Source: Caproicibacterium amylolyticum (GTDB lineage: Bacteria; Bacillota; Clostridia; Oscillospirales; Acutalibacteraceae). Taken from it: a stretch of DNA of 64,000 nucleotides. The notes below the pieces were generated by a model, which did no database searches, had not been told where the DNA came from, and worked only from the letters and a program-made list of their open reading frames with translations. The DNA is taken from assembly GCF_014467055.1 (NCBI RefSeq), contig NZ_CP060696.1:1178001-1242000 (forward strand), written 5' to 3'. Positions 52,471 through 61,616 of the stretch are shown piece after piece; within the stretch, counting starts at the first letter, position 1; each line of letters starts with the position of its first letter. Both the position numbers and the translations under genes were made by a program.

Positions 52471-53214
52471 ATGTCTGGCCATTCGAAATGGAACAATATT
52501 AAACGGAAAAAAGAAAAGACAGACGGCGCTAAAGCAAAAGTCTTTACCAAAATCGGCCGCGAACTCGCGGTCGCAGTAAAAGAGGGCGGCGGCCCCGACC
52601 CGGCCAGCAACTCCAAACTGAAGGACTGCATTGCCAAGGCAAAGGCGGCCAATGTACCAAATGATAACATTGAGCGTATCATTAAAAAAGCCGCAGGTGA
52701 CGGCGACGACACCAAGTATGAAAACATTGTGTACGAAGGTTACGGCCCTAACGGTGTAGCGGTTATTGTCGAAGCACTGTCTGACAACCGCAACCGCACG
52801 GCAGCGGATGTTCGCCATTCGTTTGACAAATTTGGCGGCAATCTCGGCACAACCGGCTGCGTATCTTTCATGTTTGAGCAGAAAGGCGTGCTGGTGATCG
52901 AGCGCGAAGACCATGATGAAGATAAAGTCATGGAAGACGCTCTTGAGGCGGGAGCAGCTGATTTTCAGGCAGATGAGGATGTCCTTGAAATCTACACGGA
53001 GCCGGATGATTTCTCTGGTGTGCTCAGTGATCTGACTGATAAGGGCTATGAGTTTGAAACCGCTGAAGTGCAGATGGTGCCCAGTACTTATGTTAAGCTG
53101 CCGGAAGACAAAGAAGCCAGCATGCAGAAGCTGCTGGATGCACTTGAGGACAATGATGATGTCCAGAATGTCTGGCACAACTGGGAAGCCCCTGAAACAG
53201 ACGACGAAGAATAA
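52471..53214 (+). CDS. yebC: YebC/PmpR family protein; host gene of the integrated element
   Basis: A 247-residue member of the YebC/TACO1 family. MSGHSKWNNIKRKK at the N-terminus, NVPNDNIERIIKKAAG (near 73-88) and YEGYGPNGVAVIVE (near 101-114) are diagnostic. Relatives act as transcription regulators or as translation factors at proline stretches. AGGAGG precedes the ATG. The final 19 codons plus stop lie in a 65-bp direct repeat: the element at 53156-61139 integrated here and kept the protein end unchanged. The gene is intact, but its native terminator has been moved 7.9 kb downstream. Confidence 0.94.
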   Translation: MSGHSKWNNIKRKKEKTDGAKAKVFTKIGRELAVAVKEGGGPDPASNSKLKDCIAKAKAANVPNDNIERIIKKAAGDGDDTKYENIVYEGYGPNGVAVIVEALSDNRNRTAADVRHSFDKFGGNLGTTGCVSFMFEQKGVLVIEREDHDEDKVMEDALEAGAADFQADEDVLEIYTEPDDFSGVLSDLTDKGYEFETAEVQMVPSTYVKLPEDKEASMQKLLDALEDNDDVQNVWHNWEAPETDDEE

Positions 53215-53220
53215 TATTCA
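53156..53220. repeat. attL: 65-bp direct repeat at the yebC 3' end
   Basis: Identical over 65 bases to 61075-61139. It begins inside yebC (ATGATGTCCAG...) and ends 6 bases beyond the stop (...AATAATATTCA). The flanks differ immediately outside on both sides, as expected for recombination core sequences. Confidence 0.95.
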
Positions 53221-53221
53221 A

Positions 53222-53243
53222 GCGGGTTTCGGGACTTTTTAAG
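53222..53243. repeat. Candidate integrase arm site near attL
   Basis: GCGGGTTTC (53222-53230) and GGACTTTTTAAG (53232-53243) recur near attR: GCGGGTTTC directly at 61040-61048 and the 12-mer inverted at 61019-61030. Confidence 0.55.
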
Positions 53244-53342
53244 AATCGTTATTGATTTGAATTGTGGAATCTGTTTTTGGACTCTGCTATATGTTCTACT
53301 TTCATGATTTGACATGATGTATATCATACGGAGGTATGCATT

Positions 53343-54260
53343 ATGCAAGATGGTATGAAAGTTAAGGAATGTATAGCAGAGTTTCTTTATGAGTGTCAAA
53401 TTAGACAGTTCACAAAGAAAACCGTAAAAGGTTATAGAAACGCTTTGAATGTTCTGCAACAGTTTCTTGACAGCAAAGGAGTAGAGCAGATAGAGGATGT
53501 AAATGTTATTGTGCTCAAATCCTTTTTTGCAGAAATGATTAAAACAAATCATAAGGAAACCTATATTAATGGATTATTAAAAGTATGTAGAGCATTATGG
53601 AAGTATCTTTGCGAGCAGGAATATATTACAGTAAATCCTACTTTAAAAGTAAGATGGGCAAAAGAGCCAAAAACAATCATTAAAACTTTTACAGATGATG
53701 AAGTTAAACGGATGCTTAAAGTGTACAGCAAAGGTAAGGACTATTTAAGTATCAGAAATCAGACGGTTATGGAAATGCTGTTTGATACCGGTGTACGTTG
53801 CTTTGAACTTTGCGAGTTATCTAATAAAGCCATTGAGGATAGTTATATTAGAATTTATGGCAAAGGAAAGAAAGAACGTCAAGTAGGATTATCTCCATAC
53901 ATGATAAAGCAAATGATGAAGTATGAAAGAACTTTTAAGGAATTCTTTTGCTATAGAATACCAAAGTATGATAATTATTTTTTGAGCCGTACAGGTAGAC
54001 CATTGACAGTTGTTGCAGTTGAAAATATCGTAAAGCGTTGTGGAATACAAGCAAACGTAAGGGATGAAATAAGGTGTTCACCTCATACGTGCAGGCATTG
54101 GTTTGCACAGGCGCAGTTAAAGAATGGTATTGATGTGTATTCGTTGAGCAGATTAATGGGGCATGAAAATATCAAGATAACACAACGATATTTACAGGGA
54201 TTACAGGATGCGGATGTTGTGAGTAAGTCAATTAAAACGAGTCCGTTAATGAATTTGTAA
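53343..54260 (+). CDS. Tyrosine recombinase / integrase of the element
   Basis: A 305-residue phage-type integrase. The N-terminal SAM-like core-binding domain lies near residues 8-90 (TVKGYRNALNVLQQFL-like pattern). The catalytic domain holds Arg I in DTGVRCFELCEL (near 143), a Lys in the beta-hairpin (YGKGKKERQVGL), HTCRHWFA (His-x-x-Arg, near 241) and LMGHENIKITQRY with the nucleophilic Tyr (near 282). GGAGG precedes the ATG. It lies just inside attL and reads into the element, which is the usual place of an integrase that acts on the flanking repeats. Confidence 0.93.
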   Translation: MQDGMKVKECIAEFLYECQIRQFTKKTVKGYRNALNVLQQFLDSKGVEQIEDVNVIVLKSFFAEMIKTNHKETYINGLLKVCRALWKYLCEQEYITVNPTLKVRWAKEPKTIIKTFTDDEVKRMLKVYSKGKDYLSIRNQTVMEMLFDTGVRCFELCELSNKAIEDSYIRIYGKGKKERQVGLSPYMIKQMMKYERTFKEFFCYRIPKYDNYFLSRTGRPLTVVAVENIVKRCGIQANVRDEIRCSPHTCRHWFAQAQLKNGIDVYSLSRLMGHENIKITQRYLQGLQDADVVSKSIKTSPLMNL

Positions 54261-55243
54261 TCGTCTGTGGGCTTGTTAGAGCGTGTTTTACTGATATTTC
54301 AGTATTAGTTTTAGCATTTGAAATTATATCGGCTTGTGAGGGCATACAGGCAATGATTTATGCCTTGTGAAACAATTCGTGTGAAACATTAATAAAAATA
54401 AGTTGGGATATTGACTGAATAGAATATTATCTGTATGATATGAGAGTGACATTATGCAGGTAGTATTCTTTTTTTATGTGATATGTAAAGGTATAATACT
54501 TTACAGTTAGATGCAAGATGATGTTATGTAAACTAAGTATTACAGTTTTGTAACTATTTGAGTTATAAACTTTCCAATGTTCTTGATTATAAATAGTCAT
54601 ATAGCAGTATATATCAGTATGAATAATTGTATCCGATTTCGGCAACGATTTATCAATTACTAATTACTATCAATATATCCAATAAATATCCAATTTATAA
54701 TATACATAATATACGCATAATTATAATATCATTCATATCTCATCTATTCGGCTCTAGTATTCTGCCTATTTATGTGTTAGCAAGTAGTAATTATACAAAA
54801 TACTTATTTTGCCTAATTAGATTTGTATTTATTGCATAATAAATAGAGTAAATAGCAGTTAATTATTTGTGATAAATGACTAATCATAATGACATATACA
54901 ATATATTGTGTTTATCACAGCGGATAAAGTATAGGAATACAGCCATTCTCTTAATAATTTAGGCAATATCACACCATAAAATAAAAGTTTTATATGATGG
55001 CTATGGATTCAGCGTAAGAAATTGATGGATGATTTATACATATAATATACGTTGATATACAAGGGGAGTAACGAAACGTAACACCCCCTTATTTATAGAG
55101 AGTGCTATAGCAAACACACTTTTTTTCTGCCAATAAAATTTTACCTCTTCTATACTTACAAAATATTTCACAAATATCATAATTGAACTTGAATCTACCC
55201 AATATTTGGTTTACAATTAACGAATAAAGGAGAGAGAAAAAAT
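54261..55243. other. Gene-poor, very AT-rich kilobase in the element
   Basis: Nearly 1 kb without a convincing gene. Two short frames (54427-54645 minus and 54627-54839 plus) have low-complexity Ile/Tyr-rich products and no ribosome binding sites. Hairpins are present: GTAAAG/CTTTAC (54485-54504) and AAGGGG/CCCCTT (55061-55090) around an ACGAAACGT core. It may hold regulatory sites, a replication origin, or remains of deleted early phage genes. Confidence 0.5.
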
Positions 55244-56236
55244 ATGAAAATCAAAAGTGTTTTATCATGTGTTCTATTAGTAAGTATTATGATGTTCTGT
55301 ACTGGATGTTCCTCAAATCATACAGTATCTTCGAGTACTACATCAAAAAGTAAATCAACTAGTTCTACCACAAGTAAAAACGTAAGTTCAGATCAAACTT
55401 CAAGTACTGATTCAGAAATTATACCAGATATTCCTTCTAATATTCAGAATTTCTACAATAATATGGTCAAAATCCATGATAAATATAAATTGGATTTTTA
55501 TTATTCCGCTAGTAATCCAGATAATATTTCCGATAATGATAGCATCAGTATTAATATGAAAAAGTCCATGAGTGACGATGATAACTCAGAATATAAACTT
55601 ACTTATTATAAAAACGATAGTGGAAATTATGAATCAAGTGCAGAAATGTCTATTGATGCTAGCGAGATAATTGAAAATCATACAATTAAACAAATAATAA
55701 TAAATCTATTTTTAACAGTAGATAATAAATTGTCATTACCAGAAGCAAGCAAAAGAACAGATATTTTAATTAATTCATATACAAAGGATTCTGTCAATTC
55801 TCCAATATATTTATCAAATTACATTATATATCTGTCACCTATGGACAGTGAATCGAAAACTGTAACACTGTATTTGAAATCTCGTAATGAAATATGGGAC
55901 AATATTTCAGCGTCTAGTTATCAAAATATTACTAAGCAAGATTATGGAGCCGTGAATACAAATAAAGACAAAAAGTACAAAATAATTGGTACTATTAAAG
56001 ATACTCATTTAAGCAGTGGCGAAGATTCAATTTCAAAAGATATTCAAACCAAAACGGTATATGTTACCGAGTCCCTTAAAATAGTAGATAAGGATAATAA
56101 TGAATATATGGTTGCATATTCATATTTAGACAGACCAGTATTATTTGAAAAAGGGAAAAAATGTATAGTTTATGGTACATTAAGTGGTGAAGATAATCCA
56201 TACCTTAATGCCGATAAAATTGAAATTACAAATTAA
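55244..56236 (+). CDS. Element-encoded lipoprotein
   Basis: A 330-residue secreted lipoprotein. A signal peptide with lipobox FCTGC ends near residue 22, followed by a 40-residue Ser/Thr/Lys linker and a soluble domain. The C-terminal 90 residues (YKIIGTIKDTHL...KCIVYGTLSGED, near 246-320) look like an OB-fold-type domain often seen in small Firmicute lipoproteins. No enzyme motif is recognised. AAAGGAGAGAG precedes the ATG. It is the only predicted surface protein of the element, so host-modifying roles such as superinfection exclusion are possible but unproven. A terminator hairpin follows at 56282-56311. Confidence 0.75.
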   Translation: MKIKSVLSCVLLVSIMMFCTGCSSNHTVSSSTTSKSKSTSSTTSKNVSSDQTSSTDSEIIPDIPSNIQNFYNNMVKIHDKYKLDFYYSASNPDNISDNDSISINMKKSMSDDDNSEYKLTYYKNDSGNYESSAEMSIDASEIIENHTIKQIIINLFLTVDNKLSLPEASKRTDILINSYTKDSVNSPIYLSNYIIYLSPMDSESKTVTLYLKSRNEIWDNISASSYQNITKQDYGAVNTNKDKKYKIIGTIKDTHLSSGEDSISKDIQTKTVYVTESLKIVDKDNNEYMVAYSYLDRPVLFEKGKKCIVYGTLSGEDNPYLNADKIEITN

Positions 56237-56874
<638 letters not shown>

Positions 56875-56885
56875 GGGGTGATATA

Positions 56886-58223
56886 ATGTATAATACGGCT
56901 TATTCTGCCTTTACTGACGCTCTAAAGCGTGAGGGCAAGGTAATTACTGCCTATTCTGATAATGCGTCCTATAACGTTATATTCAGGCGTAATAACGACT
57001 TGAATCAATTAAAGAACCGATTGACAATATTTTATTCTGCCGATTGTGGTATTCACGCGGGACAAATGTTGACCTATGGTAAGAAACATTTTCTTGCCTT
57101 GAATCAGGAAACTCCTGAGAATGATGTATATTATAAATCTAATCTGATTGAAACCAATACAACCATTAATATGATAACCAATGCTGGCGAGGTAAATATT
57201 CCTGTCTATGCTTATGATATTGCCGATGGATTAGGACAAATTAATAATGTAATGTCAGTGATTAGCGGTAATATGCACATTATTGCAGAGCCAAATTCAA
57301 TCACAAAATTATTGGAAATTAACAATCAATTTGACTCTTGTGGACGGCATTGGAAGATAAATAATATAATTGACAAGGATAATATTATCAATTTGTATTG
57401 TGAAGTTATTGCAACCACACCACATACATATACAGTTACTATTACTGCTAATGATTCCTACCATCATGGAGAATCCGCACAACTGACCGCAGTAGCAAAG
57501 CAGGATGATACAGTTATCAATAATATTCCATTTGTATGGACATCCTCTGATACATCTTTGGCAACAGTAGATAATACTGGACTTGTCAATTTCCTTGCAG
57601 ATGGCAGCGTGACTATAACGGCAACATGGACAAGTCAAAACGTAAGTGGCACAAAAACAATAGCGATAACTGAACCTGATACTTATTCTCTGTCAATTAC
57701 TGCCGATGATTCTTATACTACAGCAGACACCCCAACATTAATAGCCAATGCACAAAAGAATGGTACAACAGATTCTACAGCCACTATTACATGGACTTCC
57801 TCTGATACATCTATTGCAACGATTGACAGCACAGGCAAAGTAACATTCCTTGCGGCAGGTAGTGTCACCTTTACTGCTACATGGGTTGAACAAAATCTTA
57901 CTGCCACAGTCACCGTTTCAGTGACACAGCCAGTTTCAGCAGGTATTTGTATTATGACACATAATAATGGCACTCATTATTTAAGCACGAATATACTTTC
58001 CCTTAAAGAGGGTGGTACTGCTATGCCAATTAATGCTTTATTCCAAGATGGCAGCGGTAACACTCTGACTGGTTTAACTCCTGTATGGACTCTTTCAGAT
58101 TTAACAGGAATTACAGCGAGTGATATTACTCTAGTAGCACCTGTGAGCGGTTATCCATTGAGATGTACTGTGCAGATTGCAAGGAATACTGCATTAATTA
58201 ATGCAACGTTTAAATTGCATTGA
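56886..58223 (+). CDS. Phage structural protein with bacterial Ig-like domains
   Basis: A 445-residue protein. The first 175 residues (NAYSAFTDALKREGK-like start; GIHAGQMLTYGKKHFLAL near 61-78) look like a head-closure or tail-adaptor domain. After that come tandem BIG_2-type Ig domains, recognised by repeated WTSSDTS-ATVD-TG-V-FLA-GSVT-TATW units at about residues 212-245 and 295-330, with a third diverged one at the end. Ig domains on phage capsid and tail proteins are exposed and thought to bind cell-surface sugars. The start is ATG 56886 after GAGGGG. The stop is 13 bases before the IS end. Confidence 0.7.
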   Translation: MYNTAYSAFTDALKREGKVITAYSDNASYNVIFRRNNDLNQLKNRLTIFYSADCGIHAGQMLTYGKKHFLALNQETPENDVYYKSNLIETNTTINMITNAGEVNIPVYAYDIADGLGQINNVMSVISGNMHIIAEPNSITKLLEINNQFDSCGRHWKINNIIDKDNIINLYCEVIATTPHTYTVTITANDSYHHGESAQLTAVAKQDDTVINNIPFVWTSSDTSLATVDNTGLVNFLADGSVTITATWTSQNVSGTKTIAITEPDTYSLSITADDSYTTADTPTLIANAQKNGTTDSTATITWTSSDTSIATIDSTGKVTFLAAGSVTFTATWVEQNLTATVTVSVTQPVSAGICIMTHNNGTHYLSTNILSLKEGGTAMPINALFQDGSGNTLTGLTPVWTLSDLTGITASDITLVAPVSGYPLRCTVQIARNTALINATFKLH

Positions 58224-58278
58224 ACTATAGTCAAGTAAGTAGACACAATAATTAGGGAAAACATACTGGAAACAGGAA

Positions 58279-59199
58279 TTAAGCCTGATTCCAGAACAGT
58301 TCTTCTTTCTCGTTAGGTGTTAGCATTCGAAGAGAGCCATGAGGCCTTCTTGAGTTATAGTATCCTTCAATATATTGGAATATGGACAACTGTAATTCCT
58401 GTAGGGAGTGATAAGCTTTCCTGTTGGTTTCTTCTTTTTTTAGATATTTGAAGAAACTTTCACAGCAAGCATTATCAAAAGGATAGCCCTTTTTGGAAAA
58501 TGATTGCACAACATTAAGAGAATCTAGAAGCTGTCGAAATGAAAAAGCAGTATACTGAGATCCTCGATCAGAATGAAACATAAGTCCAGAAGGGCAGTTT
58601 CTTCTATCATAAGCTTTTTTGAACGCAGTCATGACGAGGTCGACATCTGGCTTGCCTGATATGTTCCAGGAGATGACTTTGCGAGAAAATAAATCCATTA
58701 CAATACAAAGATAATACCATTTGCCGGCAACTTTGATGTATGTGAAATCACTTGCCCAGACAATGTTTGGAGTTTGCTGATTGAACTCCTGGTGAAGGTG
58801 GTTGGTACACTCGCCGTTGTCCCGATGCTTATAATTTTTATAAGGTTTTTCGGTGGACATCCGTGGAAGTTTTAGAGTCCTCATCAGTCGGTACACTCGT
58901 CCGACACTGATGTTAATGCCATAATCACGCTGGAGAACATAGGTAATCTTGTAAGCTCCAAGACGTTTGTTATAATCTGCATAGATTTTAAGAATAAGCT
59001 TTGCAATCGTTTGATTGTCTTTTGTACGATCAGCCGGTTCGGTGTTGTAATGCTTATAGTAAGTACTTCGATTAACGCCAAGAACCTTACAAAGGAGCTT
59101 GATATTGTGTTGGAAACGGAGCTTATGAATAGCTTCTAATCGTTGTTTGAGTGTGGCGTGAAGATGGCAATCGCTTTTTTTAGTATAAGGAGTTCCTCC
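58279..59199 (-). CDS. IS3-family transposase OrfB (DDE domain)
   Basis: The frame is open from 59199 to the stop at 58279, about 306 codons, with HTH_21-type sequence (LGAYKITYVLQRDYGINISV) and an rve integrase core. The catalytic DDE residues are in WASDFTYIK, HSDRGSQY and NACCESFFKYLKKE. It has no start codon early in the frame, because it is made as an OrfAB fusion by -1 frameshifting at A7G (59174-59181). It appears intact. Confidence 0.88.
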   Translation of the reverse strand, partial: GGTPYTKKSDCHLHATLKQRLEAIHKLRFQHNIKLLCKVLGVNRSTYYKHYNTEPADRTKDNQTIAKLILKIYADYNKRLGAYKITYVLQRDYGINISVGRVYRLMRTLKLPRMSTEKPYKNYKHRDNGECTNHLHQEFNQQTPNIVWASDFTYIKVAGKWYYLCIVMDLFSRKVISWNISGKPDVDLVMTAFKKAYDRRNCPSGLMFHSDRGSQYTAFSFRQLLDSLNVVQSFSKKGYPFDNACCESFFKYLKKEETNRKAYHSLQELQLSIFQYIEGYYNSRRPHGSLRMLTPNEKEELFWNQA

Positions 59200-59429
59200 T
59201 CAAGCTGAGCATTACGCTTTTGGAGGTCTTTGACCTGCTTAGCAGTTAGTATTTCGCCATCATCCGTTTCGACGATTGAGTATTGTTTAATCCAACGGCC
59301 AAGTGCGGTGATAGAAACGCCATACTCTTTACAGAGTGCTGCTTGTGATTTGCCGCCAGATTGATAAAGGTTGACGAGAGTTCGTTTGAAATCTTCGTCA
59401 TATCGGGTTCCGGTTTTACCAGTGGACAT
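59136..59429 (-). CDS. IS3-family transposase OrfA
   Basis: A 97-residue protein with the HTH_Tnp_1 domain (YDEDFKRTLVNLYQSGGKSQ near residues 9-28, then ALCKEYGVS) and a leucine-zipper-like C-terminal helix (LQKRNAQLEEELLILKKAI). It overlaps OrfB; the AAAAAAAG slip site lies near codon 84. In this family OrfA alone is regulatory and the fusion is the active transposase. Confidence 0.88.
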   Translation of the reverse strand: MSTGKTGTRYDEDFKRTLVNLYQSGGKSQAALCKEYGVSITALGRWIKQYSIVETDDGEILTAKQVKDLQKRNAQLEEELLILKKAIAIFTPHSNND

Positions 59430-59494
59430 GAGTAAGTGCCTCCTTTTGGGTGTCTACTTAATTATAATTGATAGTTACTTCAGGTGTCCACTTA

Positions 59495-59578
59495 TTTAAT
59501 ATAGATCCACACGATGATTTATGTATGGCGGCAGGAATGGGCTTACAGGGAATCAAATGCGGAATTAATTATCATTAA
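59495..59578 (+). pseudogene. 3' remnant of a phage gene, probably terminase large subunit
   Basis: Directly beyond the IS, a frame reads FNIDPHDDLCMAAGMGLQGI, ends with a taa at 59576 and overlaps the portal ribosome binding site. A HDD-x-x-x-A-x-x-x-G pattern at the very end, just before a portal gene, fits the C-terminus of a TerL nuclease domain and the canonical terL-portal order. The 5' part is missing. The family call rests on 25 residues and gene order. Confidence 0.45.
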
Positions 59579-59591
59579 GGAGTGTGATAGA

Positions 59592-60884
59592 ATGGTAGAT
59601 ATGACAAAACCATTTTGGTTTGAAGATGTTCCTTTTGAGCGTGAACACCAACAGCGTATTAGCAACGTGTTAGACATAAAGCAGTATTTTCTGAGAATGC
59701 ATAAGGTGCTGAAACGTCCTGATTTTAAATTTAAAGGTGAAACCTATACAACTGCAAAGATTGTATTGCAAACATTAAAGATTATCGAAAATTTCCATGC
59801 TTCCTACATATTGGGCAATCCTATTTCAATCACAGGCGAGCAGAATATTGTAAAGGAATTCAATAGGATTTATAAAAAGGGGCGTTACAATACAGCAGAT
59901 TATCAAATTGCACAGGATTTGGCAAAGTATGGTAATGCCTTTGAGTATGATTATATGGATAATAATGTAGTGAAACCTCACATCATTCCTAACGAGAGTG
60001 CTTATCCAGTTTATGATGATGCAGAAAATTATATTGCTTTTGTAGAATATTGGAAAGATGCCGATACAGGCACAGCACATTATTATGTATATTATCCTGA
60101 TAAAGTGCAAATTTGGAAAGATAATGTAATGGTTTCTGAAAAACCAAACCTTACAGGATTGCCAATCCATTATGCGTCATTGGATAAGACAGCATATAAT
60201 TTCTTTGGTGATAGTCCGATGAATGACTTAATTCCTATTATGGATAAAATTGAAAATCTGCTATCAAAGTTGGATGATGCTATTACTACATTATCAATGA
60301 ATCCTCTTGGTGTTTGTGCTGGACGTGCTACAGATGCAAGTGTAAGTAAAGATATGTGCGGCGAAATGCTTGTATTTGAAGCAGGTGGCGGCTTTAAGTA
60401 TGCTAGTGCTACACTGGATTATAATAGTATAAAACTGGAATTGGACAATCTTATCCAACAGTTGTATACAATCGCTTGTGTGCCGAGTGCAGTAGTAGGA
60501 CAAAGCAATATTGCTAATGTAAGTGAAATTTCATTGAAATTGTTATTTAGTCAGAGCGACAACAGAGCGAAGCAAATGACTAAGGTGCTGAAAGATGGAT
60601 TTTACCTGCGCTTTGAATATTTTAGGAAATTACTGGCATTACAAGGCAAGACATTTACAGATGATGATTTTGATGAAGTAGATGTCACATTCAATTACAA
60701 TCGTCCAGTTGATACACAAAGCATGATTAACGAACTAAAGACACAATATGATATGGGTGCTATTTCTAAGCAAACAGTTATTGACCTTAGTCCATATACG
60801 ACTAATACAGCGTTGGAGATGCAACGACTACAGGATAAAGATGAAGTCCCAATTCAGGACAACAAGAATGATGTAAAAATTTAG
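59592..60884 (+). CDS. Phage portal protein (SPP1 gp6-like)
   Basis: A 430-residue portal, the dodecameric ring for DNA entry in tailed phages. Signs are KGETYTTAKIVLQTLKIIENFH near residue 50, AKYGNAFEYDYMD (near 116), the SPMNDLIPIMDKIENLLSKL clip/stem region (near 212-231) and SALVGQSN-like SAVVGQSNIANVSEISLKLL (near 303). Length is near that of SPP1 gp6 (503). AAGGAG is 8 bases before ATG 59592; a longer frame upstream contains the IS border and is rejected. It looks complete, yet the capsid genes that normally follow are absent; attR begins 190 bases later. Confidence 0.85.
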   Translation: MVDMTKPFWFEDVPFEREHQQRISNVLDIKQYFLRMHKVLKRPDFKFKGETYTTAKIVLQTLKIIENFHASYILGNPISITGEQNIVKEFNRIYKKGRYNTADYQIAQDLAKYGNAFEYDYMDNNVVKPHIIPNESAYPVYDDAENYIAFVEYWKDADTGTAHYYVYYPDKVQIWKDNVMVSEKPNLTGLPIHYASLDKTAYNFFGDSPMNDLIPIMDKIENLLSKLDDAITTLSMNPLGVCAGRATDASVSKDMCGEMLVFEAGGGFKYASATLDYNSIKLELDNLIQQLYTIACVPSAVVGQSNIANVSEISLKLLFSQSDNRAKQMTKVLKDGFYLRFEYFRKLLALQGKTFTDDDFDEVDVTFNYNRPVDTQSMINELKTQYDMGAISKQTVIDLSPYTTNTALEMQRLQDKDEVPIQDNKNDVKI

Positions 60885-61018
60885 TGACGTATAGCACAGT
60901 TCCCATATTGCAATGCTATCCCCATAATGCTATAATATTCAACATGAGTTGTTACAAAAAATCATTATAAACAATGATATACGTCATGCCGAAAATGAAG
61001 CAAATTAGTATAATGAAA

Positions 61019-61048
61019 CTTAAAAAGTCCAGTGTTTATGCGGGTTTC
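61019..61048. repeat. Candidate integrase arm sites near attR
   Basis: CTTAAAAAGTCC (61019-61030, exact inverse of 53232-53243) and GCGGGTTTC (61040-61048, direct copy of 53222-53230) sit 27 to 56 bases inside attR. Confidence 0.55.
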
Positions 61049-61074
61049 AAGGTTATTTGGCTTGTTAAATCCAC

Positions 61075-61139
61075 ATGATGTCCAGAATGTCTGGCACAAC
61101 TGGGAAGCCCCTGAAACAGACGACGAAGAATAATATTCA
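61075..61139. repeat. attR: 65-bp direct repeat
   Basis: A perfect copy of 53156-53220. It encodes the last 19 codons of yebC without a gene in front and is followed by chromosomal sequence with the former yebC terminator. Confidence 0.95.
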
Positions 61140-61155
61140 GTTGCGTAAAGATGTG

Positions 61156-61187
61156 GTCCCCTGTTTGCATTGCAGACAGGGGACTTT
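61156..61187 (+). terminator. Displaced native terminator of yebC
   Basis: GTCCCCTGT/ACAGGGGAC stem (with an inner TGCA/TGCA pair) followed by TTTGTT, 17 bases beyond attR. In the unoccupied site it would lie about 25 bases after the yebC stop. Confidence 0.8.
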
Positions 61188-61319: not shown

Positions 61320-61616
61320 ATGAAAAAGATGAAAATAAAGTTGTATGTTAAACTTCAATTCAAAAATTCACTCCAATTCCGCTTCTTGAGGAAAGAATAT
61401 GAAAGCAACTGCATTCCACATACAGGGGACTATATTGAGGATCCATATTTTGCAGAGCCGGATGGATTCGAGATTGCACGAACAATAATAAATTATCGAG
61501 ATGATTACTGTAATGTCTATGTGAAGCCATTTGTAATTAATGACGATAACGAAGCCCAGATGGAACAGCAGATTGAGTTGGCAATGGCACAAAACTGGAA
61601 AATTGACTTAATTTAA
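61320..61616 (+). CDS. Small protein of unknown function
   Basis: A 98-residue soluble protein with no recognised motif; the N-terminal 25 residues are basic and the C-terminal helix acidic (DNEAQMEQQIELAMAQNW). AAAGGGAAG precedes the ATG at a short distance, and a near-consensus promoter lies directly upstream, which supports a real gene. It is AT-rich like the integrated element but lies outside attR, so it may belong to an older insertion. Confidence 0.55.
   Translation: MKKMKIKLYVKLQFKNSLQFRFLRKEYESNCIPHTGDYIEDPYFAEPDGFEIARTIINYRDDYCNVYVKPFVINDDNEAQMEQQIELAMAQNWKIDLI

What the first reader, a model, noticed from the sequence alone, without database searches (positions are those of the whole stretch)
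53156..61139. Phage-derived element that uses the 3' end of yebC as its attachment site
A 65-bp perfect direct repeat lies exactly at the ends of a segment with a tyrosine recombinase, and one copy is the end of yebC including the stop codon. The element carries its own copy of the yebC tail, so integration leaves the protein unchanged. Integration into the 3' end of a translation- or transcription-factor gene rather than a tRNA is less usual, and the native terminator is displaced 7.9 kb. Seen directly: repeats, recombinase, displaced terminator. Inferred: mobility.
Basis: partly seen in the sequence, partly recalled or inferred. Interest (0 to 1): 0.75.

Follow-up and report, generated by a model that had tools for sequence, protein, structure and literature searches.

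The report
Decayed phage-like element inserted at yebC
A worn-down phage-like DNA element sits at the end of the bacterial gene yebC, and its intact relatives, which appear to make virus heads but no tails, use the same gene or one other housekeeping gene as their docking site.

Summary
Observation confirmed: a perfect 65-bp repeat (53156-53220, 61075-61139) bounds a 34% GC segment that begins with a tyrosine recombinase; the left copy is the end of yebC. Site-specific integration at yebC is now shown for the family: sibling genome G004 carries a related element at yebC, and relative G010 has the matching empty site. An IMG/VR record (L041, 14,853 bp, 99-bp end repeat) carries the attP junction, its arms matching G004's attL and attR. 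Of 21 integrase places on host contigs, 12 lie just 3' of yebC and 6 just 3' of a GAPDH gene. The window copy is a remnant: an IS3-family copy sits where about 8.9 kb of L041 (capsid, scaffold, primase-like, most of the terminase) is missing. Three full-length relatives (14.75-15.25 kb) carry terminase, portal, scaffold, capsid and an Ig protein; no tape measure was found in them. This suggests a capsid-encoding satellite that borrows tails, like cf-PICIs or MulchRoom; helper dependence is untested. Integration does not always leave YebC unchanged: in G278 its last residues differ.

The parts
52471..53214 (+). yebC (target gene); its end from about 53164 on is inferred to come from the element
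   Evidence: NF001030 / TIGR01033 / PF01709 hits
53156..53220 (+). attL: left copy of the 65-bp perfect repeat; inferred crossover window 53164-53177
   Evidence: crossover window from six elements
53343..54260 (+). tyrosine recombinase (integrase) of the yebC/gap clade
   Evidence: PF00589 E=1.5e-28; phrog_1 integrase; tree and neighbours
55244..56236 (+). 330-aa ORF with a lipoprotein-like N-terminus (by reading); no family hit
   Evidence: no hit in Pfam, PHROGs, NCBIfam; no tblastn match below E=0.88 in eight related loci
56524..56874 (+). 116-aa conserved protein of the head module, possible head-tail connector (inferred from its place; no database hit)
   Evidence: 85% identical in G004, 84% in L041, 41% in L071; structure model inconclusive
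56886..58223 (+). Big_2 (Ig-like) structural protein, cut at its C-terminus by the IS3 element
   Evidence: PF02368 E=2.5e-18; phrog_215 structural protein with Ig domain; ends short of its relatives, IS starts at 58221
58221..59509 (-). IS3-family insertion sequence at the deletion junction; no target-site duplication here
   Evidence: NF033516; ten full-length copies in the genome, this one included; flanks
59510..59578 (+). last 22 codons and stop of the large terminase gene (remnant)
   Evidence: HDDL...GINYH* matches the end of L041 TerL
59592..60884 (+). portal protein (SPP1 gp6-like)
   Evidence: PF05133 E=5.1e-50; phrog_64; 87-88% identical in L041/G004
61075..61139 (+). attR: right copy of the 65-bp repeat
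61155..61185 (+). hairpin, probably the native yebC terminator, displaced to the far side of the element

Best explanation
The segment 53156-61139 is the remnant of an integrative element of about 15 kb. Its tyrosine integrase recombines a circular form into the 3' end of yebC, inside the codons for the Q-N-V-(W/Y)-H stretch near the YebC C-terminus, and the element brings its own copy of the last codons (about 16 residues here), so the gene keeps a usable end. Full-length relatives carry terminase, portal, scaffold and major-capsid genes, and a primase-like gene or a replacement, but no recognised tail genes. The likeliest lifestyle is therefore a satellite that builds its own small head and borrows a tail from a helper phage. 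In the window copy an IS3-family element marks a deletion of the genes between the Ig protein and the end of the terminase gene. Shown: repeats, integrase, empty site (sibling), attP record, recurrence at yebC, gene content, missing genes. Inferred: excision in vivo, that the IS caused the deletion, head size, helper dependence, present immobility of this copy.
For: Empty site: in G010 yebC runs straight into a kinase-like gene; G004 has a 9,286-bp element between the same genes; joined G004 flanks match G010 at 176 of 183 positions without gaps. attP: L041 (14,853 bp, 99-bp end repeat) holds one yebC tail between portal and integrase, its arms matching those of G004 attL and attR (97.5% over 730 bp and 97.6% over 288 bp). 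Recurrence: of 21 integrase places on host contigs 12 lie 3' of yebC and 6 lie 3' of a GAPDH gene, all 18 on the same strand and 132-386 bp away; 3 lie near neither. Full-length relatives: 14,754 bp (L041), 15,250 bp (G278), about 15.1 kb (G265, at the GAPDH gene with a 77-bp perfect repeat), with one gene order. Capsid genes: MCP phrog_544/267, scaffold phrog_172, TerL phrog_2. No tape measure (phrog_28) in the L041 and L063 records, nor inside the G278 and G265 elements, while the 32.9-kb contig of L071, with the same head genes, has one (phrog_4211, E=5.5e-89). Missing genes: the Ig protein ends short and only the TerL end remains at an IS3 with ten copies in the genome and no target duplication, though 5 of 7 other copies read have one.
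Against: No empty site for the window's own locus was found. Two other IS copies also lack a target duplication, so deletion by the IS is only suggestive. A tail could be built from proteins that no library recognises: the 116-aa and 258-aa proteins have no informative hit, structure models of the 116-aa and Ig proteins were poor (pLDDT 59.9 and 62.4), and the first gave no PDB match at E<=0.001. The Ig protein also matches tail families, through its Ig domains, and a 91-aa holin-like protein has an insignificant tape-measure hit (E=0.022). Six prophage regions of the hosts share no detectable genes with the element, so no helper is identified.
Confidence: 0.75

Rival explanations
1. The intact relatives are complete miniature phages whose short tail is made of unrecognised proteins (Ig protein, 116-aa protein), and the window holds a decayed one.
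For: The element encodes portal, terminase, capsid and an Ig protein that could serve as a tail or receptor-binding part; Ig domains match tail families; a holin-like protein is present (phrog_4898, E=2e-6).
Against: Homologues of the 116-aa and Ig proteins occur with the same head genes in a 32.9-kb contig that has a tape measure, which fits a head or neck role; no endolysin and no other significant tail match among the 12 L041 and 8 L043 proteins scanned.
Confidence: 0.17
2. The window segment is just a full-size siphophage prophage that lost its tail genes by deletion, with no satellite stage.
For: The window copy clearly lost genes at an IS3 element; head genes resemble those of larger phages.
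Against: Three full-length relatives of nearly the same size and gene order, one of them a record with end repeats, lack a tape measure; separate losses giving the same layout are unlikely.
Confidence: 0.07
3. The repeats come from an assembly duplication or a local duplication of the yebC end, unrelated to an integrase.
For: None found.
Against: A second genome, G004, has its own 60-bp repeat and an empty-site relative; attP record; the similarity starts at the same codon position (-8) in five of six elements.
Confidence: 0.01

Closest known systems
Capsid-forming PICIs (cf-PICIs)
   Same: Integrated element with own capsid, portal and terminase that depends on its helper only for tails (passages of PMC10690885 and PMC11389934).
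   Different: No head maturation protease and no convincing HNH endonuclease detected here; a scaffold protein instead; no helper known. The defining paper (Alqurainy 2023) is not held.
MulchRoom, capsid-encoding satellite of a Streptomyces phage
   Same: Tyrosine integrase plus small and large terminase, portal, major capsid, scaffold and head-to-tail adaptor; virions with small heads and long tails thought to come from the helper (passages of PMC10690885).
   Different: MulchRoom is reported to lack primase homologues; L041 and G265 have a protein with a CHC2 zinc finger hit (for L041; same cluster in L044). Sequence relation was not tested.
Larger uncultivated phages such as L071 and L084/L073 (IMG/VR contigs of 32.9 and 33.4 kb)
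   Same: Same head genes: MCP 51-54%, TerL 47-49%, portal 51-52%, 116-aa protein 40-41% identical to L041.
   Different: L071 carries a 2,316-aa tape measure and further virion proteins; an ORF of the same cluster is in L073.
Named phages in the INPHARED collection
   Same: Distant homologues only.
   Different: Portal: 1 record, 24.5% identity. MCP: 71 records, all below 60%, best of the 12 listed 28.1%. Integrase: 298 records, all below 60%, best of the 10 listed 30.8%.

Membership tests
Element integrated by a tyrosine recombinase into a gene 3' end | Integrase gene next to one attachment site | tested here: met
   53343-54260, 132 bp from the yebC alignment end
Element integrated by a tyrosine recombinase into a gene 3' end | Direct repeats with one copy forming the gene end | tested here: met
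Element integrated by a tyrosine recombinase into a gene 3' end | Empty site in a relative | tested here: met
   for sibling G004 against G010; not found for the window's own locus
Element integrated by a tyrosine recombinase into a gene 3' end | Excised circular form with attP | tested here: met
   for relative L041: 99-bp end repeat and one yebC tail; circularity inferred from the end repeat; nothing seen for the window copy
cf-PICI | Major capsid, portal, large terminase encoded | tested here: met
   in L041; in the window only the portal and a TerL remnant remain
cf-PICI | Small terminase | tested here: inconclusive
   156-aa gene before TerL, placed as TerS; best hits E=0.011 (RusA) and 0.026
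cf-PICI | Head maturation protease | tested here: not met
   none detected among 12 L041 and 8 L043 proteins scanned; a diverged one could be missed
cf-PICI | HNH endonuclease | tested here: inconclusive
   only weak hits (best HNH family E=0.0025) of a 76-aa zinc protein in L043
cf-PICI | Head-tail connectors | tested here: inconclusive
   116-aa protein by position only; no hit or usable model
cf-PICI | No tail genes | tested here: met
   no tape measure; tail-family hits only through the Ig protein, plus one insignificant hit at E=0.022; unrecognised tail proteins not excluded
cf-PICI | Helper phage supplies tails | not testable with these tools
   hosts carry tape-measure genes elsewhere; no direct link
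MulchRoom-type satellite | No primase homologue | tested here: not met
   CHC2 zinc finger in L041, E=7.3e-5, 22.9 bits, slightly below Pfam's cut-off of 24.9
Complete temperate siphophage | Tape measure gene | tested here: not met

The most novel reading that the evidence does not exclude
A separate lineage of tail-less, capsid-encoding satellites, apparently of Clostridia, served by an integrase clade that reads the conserved C-terminal codons of housekeeping genes: yebC or, after one switch, the GAPDH gene. The satellite replaces the end of the host protein with its own version, so that a conserved host factor ends in satellite-encoded residues. The same integrase clade also carries largely unrelated cargo into yebC in other families of the class.
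Probability: 0.5. Interest if true: 0.65.

Novelty: new variant of a known kind. Interest (0 to 1): 0.5.

Why it matters
It adds two protein-coding attachment sites, yebC and the GAPDH gene, that my searches of the held open-licence papers did not find described, with a natural specificity switch between them inside one integrase clade. That makes it possible to ask which integrase residues choose the target. It also points to tail-less, capsid-encoding elements with no close relative among 50,697 phage records. The different YebC end in G278 suggests that such integration can edit a conserved host factor.

Tried and rejected
Assembly or chance duplication: rejected by the sibling repeat and the empty site. 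Empty site for the window's own element: the ORFs right of attR were compared with about 8 kb around yebC in eight relatives and 18 kb in G004; the only match was weak (23.6% identity, E=1.8e-8, a 603-aa ORF about 6.7 kb out, in G003), so no empty site. 'Full phage with tail': no tape measure in L041 or L063, which may be fragments. Structure route: models at pLDDT 59.9 and 62.4; no Foldseek match at E<=0.001 for the first, the second was not submitted; profile searches against PDB sequences gave nothing convincing for the 116-aa protein and mostly Ig-type matches for the Ig protein. MCP search in 394 order genomes gave 0; the tool warned that no genome known to match was in the draw, so it shows little. 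G398: its repeat extends left of the usual edge; kept in the comparison, unexplained. Helper search by shared genes in six host prophage regions: none at E<=1e-3. Left out of the tree: G004 (split), G458, G520 and G779 (broken), L078 (no hit at 1e-10). Left out: L037, the second part of G004's split integrase. Papers: PMC4398514 and PMC9453066 (passages read) mention yebC without an attachment site; PMC3877243 and 22 of the 23 papers were seen as listings at most (20 listed). Not done: a scan of the cargo for defence families (one search failed).
Full report
What is there. One search confirms the 65-bp perfect direct repeat at 53156-53220 and 61075-61139 (spacing 7,919). The whole genome holds only these two places. 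yebC runs 52471-53214; the repeat is its last 59 nt plus 6 nt. Between the repeats lie, from left to right: a tyrosine recombinase (53343-54260), a lipoprotein-like ORF without any family hit (55244-56236), a 116-aa ORF (56524-56874), a protein with Big_2 Ig domains (56886-58223), an IS3-family element on the other strand (58221-59509), the last 22 codons of a large terminase gene, and an SPP1-type portal (59592-60884). GC between the repeats is 34.1%, outside the element 48.9%. The hairpin at 61155-61185 is where yebC's own terminator would be expected.

Integration is shown in a sibling. The integrase was searched in 300 family genomes (5 with E<=1e-40). G004, of the same genus, has its integrase (split by a transposase gene that looks IS30-like, by reading only) right after yebC, and a 60-bp perfect repeat 9,286 bp apart. 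In G010, also of the genus, yebC is followed directly by the kinase-like gene (name by reading) that lies beyond G004's right repeat. BLAST of the two regions gives 96.4% over 1,149 bp on the left and 94.6% over 7,159 bp on the right, and the joined G004 flanks align to G010 at 176 of 183 positions without gaps. This is the empty site. It was found for the sibling, not for the window's own element: in nine relatives the ORFs right of the window's attR were not found near yebC, apart from one weak match (23.6% identity).

The free form. An IMG/VR record, L041 (14,853 bp; 99-bp identical ends, so 14,754 bp if circular), carries portal (87% identical to the window's), 116-aa protein (84%), Ig protein (67%) and integrase (65%). 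One yebC tail lies between portal and integrase; its arms match those of G004's attL and attR (97.5% over 730 bp and 97.6% over 288 bp). From the D codon on, the tail encodes the same residues as G004's YebC end, with four synonymous differences (read). A further viral record, L060, shows portal, yebC tail and a kinase-like gene that resembles those after yebC in G010 and G035 (by reading), so an integrated right end. A yebC tail was found in 2 of the 16 viral records with a related portal that were looked through (L041, L060); most of these are fragments. End repeats can also arise from terminally redundant DNA, so circularity is inferred.

A clade of integrases that uses yebC or the GAPDH gene. 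Integrase relatives came (10 of 394 order genomes at E<=1e-30; 6 of 391 class genomes); the draws overlap. Of 22 loci given, L041 is free; of the other 21, 12 lie 3' of yebC, 6 lie 3' of a GAPDH gene and 3 lie near neither (a second, broken match in G458, and two integrases of about 30% identity). All 18 are on the target gene's strand, 132-386 bp beyond the aligned gene end. In a 17-row tree the GAPDH users form one clade with support 100/100; the yebC users need two label changes. Cargo differs in the yebC elements of G732 (8,450 bp between anchors), G949 (12,108) and G398 (6,659): apart from the integrase, one search finds only weak matches, a small-terminase-like one in G779 (E=6.9e-5) and a replication-gene one in G398 (E=9e-5). 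So the integrase clade serves several kinds of element.

Where the exchange happens. attL and attR of six yebC elements were compared. In five of six the similarity starts at the same place, 8 bases before the Q codon of the Q-N-V-(W/Y)-H stretch (Q-E-V in G949); in G398 it reaches further left. Intersecting the exact blocks leaves 14 bp from that Q codon, window 53164-53177. Mutations after integration could shift this. It implies that the remaining bases of the 65 serve to restore the coding end. In G278 the YebC end reads ...WENPEEE, while its right copy, the presumed former end, reads ...WENADDGEDEE: the protein was probably changed by the integration.

What the element was. Clustering of ORFs from 16 loci, with the L041 and G265 ORF lists, gives one order in the full-length relatives: integrase, 116-aa protein, Ig protein, holin-like protein, scaffold, major capsid, XRE-type regulator, 258-aa and 71-aa proteins, primase-like gene (a different gene in G278), a small gene, a putative small terminase, large terminase, portal, att. 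Sizes are 14,754 bp (L041), 15,250 bp (G278) and about 15.1 kb in G265, which sits at the GAPDH gene with a 77-bp perfect repeat. Assignments: MCP, scaffold, TerL; CHC2 zinc finger E=7.3e-5, slightly below Pfam's cut-off. PHROG scans of 12 L041 and 8 L043 proteins gave no tail family except through the Ig protein, and one insignificant tape-measure hit at E=0.022; L041's portal and integrase and the G265 proteins were not scanned. A tape-measure model (phrog_28) finds nothing in the L041 and L063 records, which may be fragments, and in G278 and G265 only matches away from the element. By contrast the 32.9-kb contig of L071, with the same head genes, has a tape measure. The hosts G000, G004, G278 and G265 all have tape-measure matches elsewhere, so tails may be available, but six such regions share no genes with the element at E<=1e-3.

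How it most likely works. After entry the circle recombines at yebC; the gene gets the element's own end; the integrase then lies downstream of yebC without the native terminator, so read-through from yebC could express it (inference). On induction, probably by a helper, the element replicates, packages about 15 kb into its own head and takes a tail from the helper. The last steps are inferred from gene content and from cf-PICIs and MulchRoom (passages of PMC10690885 and PMC11389934). It is not filed as a cf-PICI: no protease was detected, HNH is unconvincing, helper dependence is untested.

State of the window copy. The Ig gene runs into the IS3 left end, short of its relatives, and the terminase resumes at the IS right end; in L041 coordinates about 8.9 kb lies between these points (my arithmetic). 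The IS has ten full-length copies in the genome, the window's included. Of eight copies whose flanks were read, five have a 3-4 bp duplication; the window's and two others have none, which fits, but does not prove, a deletion by the IS. G004 also lacks the middle genes, with other breakpoints.

Novelty. Paper searches with yebC and attachment site/integrase (1 paper, listing), prophage/integration site (1 paper, passages) or integrative (23 papers, 20 listed, 1 read by passages), and with GAPDH gene plus attachment site (0 papers), found no description of these sites (open-licence papers only). Named phages are distant. This is a new variant of a known kind: known recombination logic and a known satellite-like strategy, with new target genes and an uncultivated lineage.

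Noticed in passing
L116 (G265 contig C10), L137 (G265 contig C20): G265 holds a full-length element of the same family at the GAPDH gene and a second, partial copy (portal, terminase, replication-gene replacement) on a 6.9-kb contig.
   Followed up: partly
L138:13095-16548 (G293): Terminase and portal 47-50% identical to L041's lie downstream of an ORF that looks like lysyl-tRNA synthetase (by reading only); this integrase did not match there.
   Followed up: no
L147, L063 and L078: Relatives with the same capsid genes but another tyrosine-recombinase-like ORF (L078, L147) or a serine-recombinase-like ORF (L063), by reading only; the capsid module seems to change integrases.
   Followed up: partly
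L041:10587-11819, L042:7212-7976, L044:10259-11737: Families of 40-190 bp direct repeats, some with short ORFs, shared in kind by several elements; role unknown.
   Followed up: no
L043:14314-14785: Five copies of a 39-bp GC-rich repeat, 55-250 bp apart, between integrase and head genes of the G278 element.
   Followed up: no
window 55244-56236: 330-aa lipoprotein-like ORF (27.6% GC) with no family hit and no clear match in eight related loci; possible cargo gene.
   Followed up: partly
L045 and L049 (G153): A second contig starts inside yebC with a different tail: either attR or an empty allele in the same sample.
   Followed up: partly
window 61320-61616: 98-aa ORF just outside attR matches phrog_17183 (E=9.1e-10), a viral family of unknown function.
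   Followed up: no
elements in G732, G949, G398, G779, G153 and L040: yebC elements of other genera also carry a small resolvase-like serine recombinase ORF (by reading the list).
   Followed up: no
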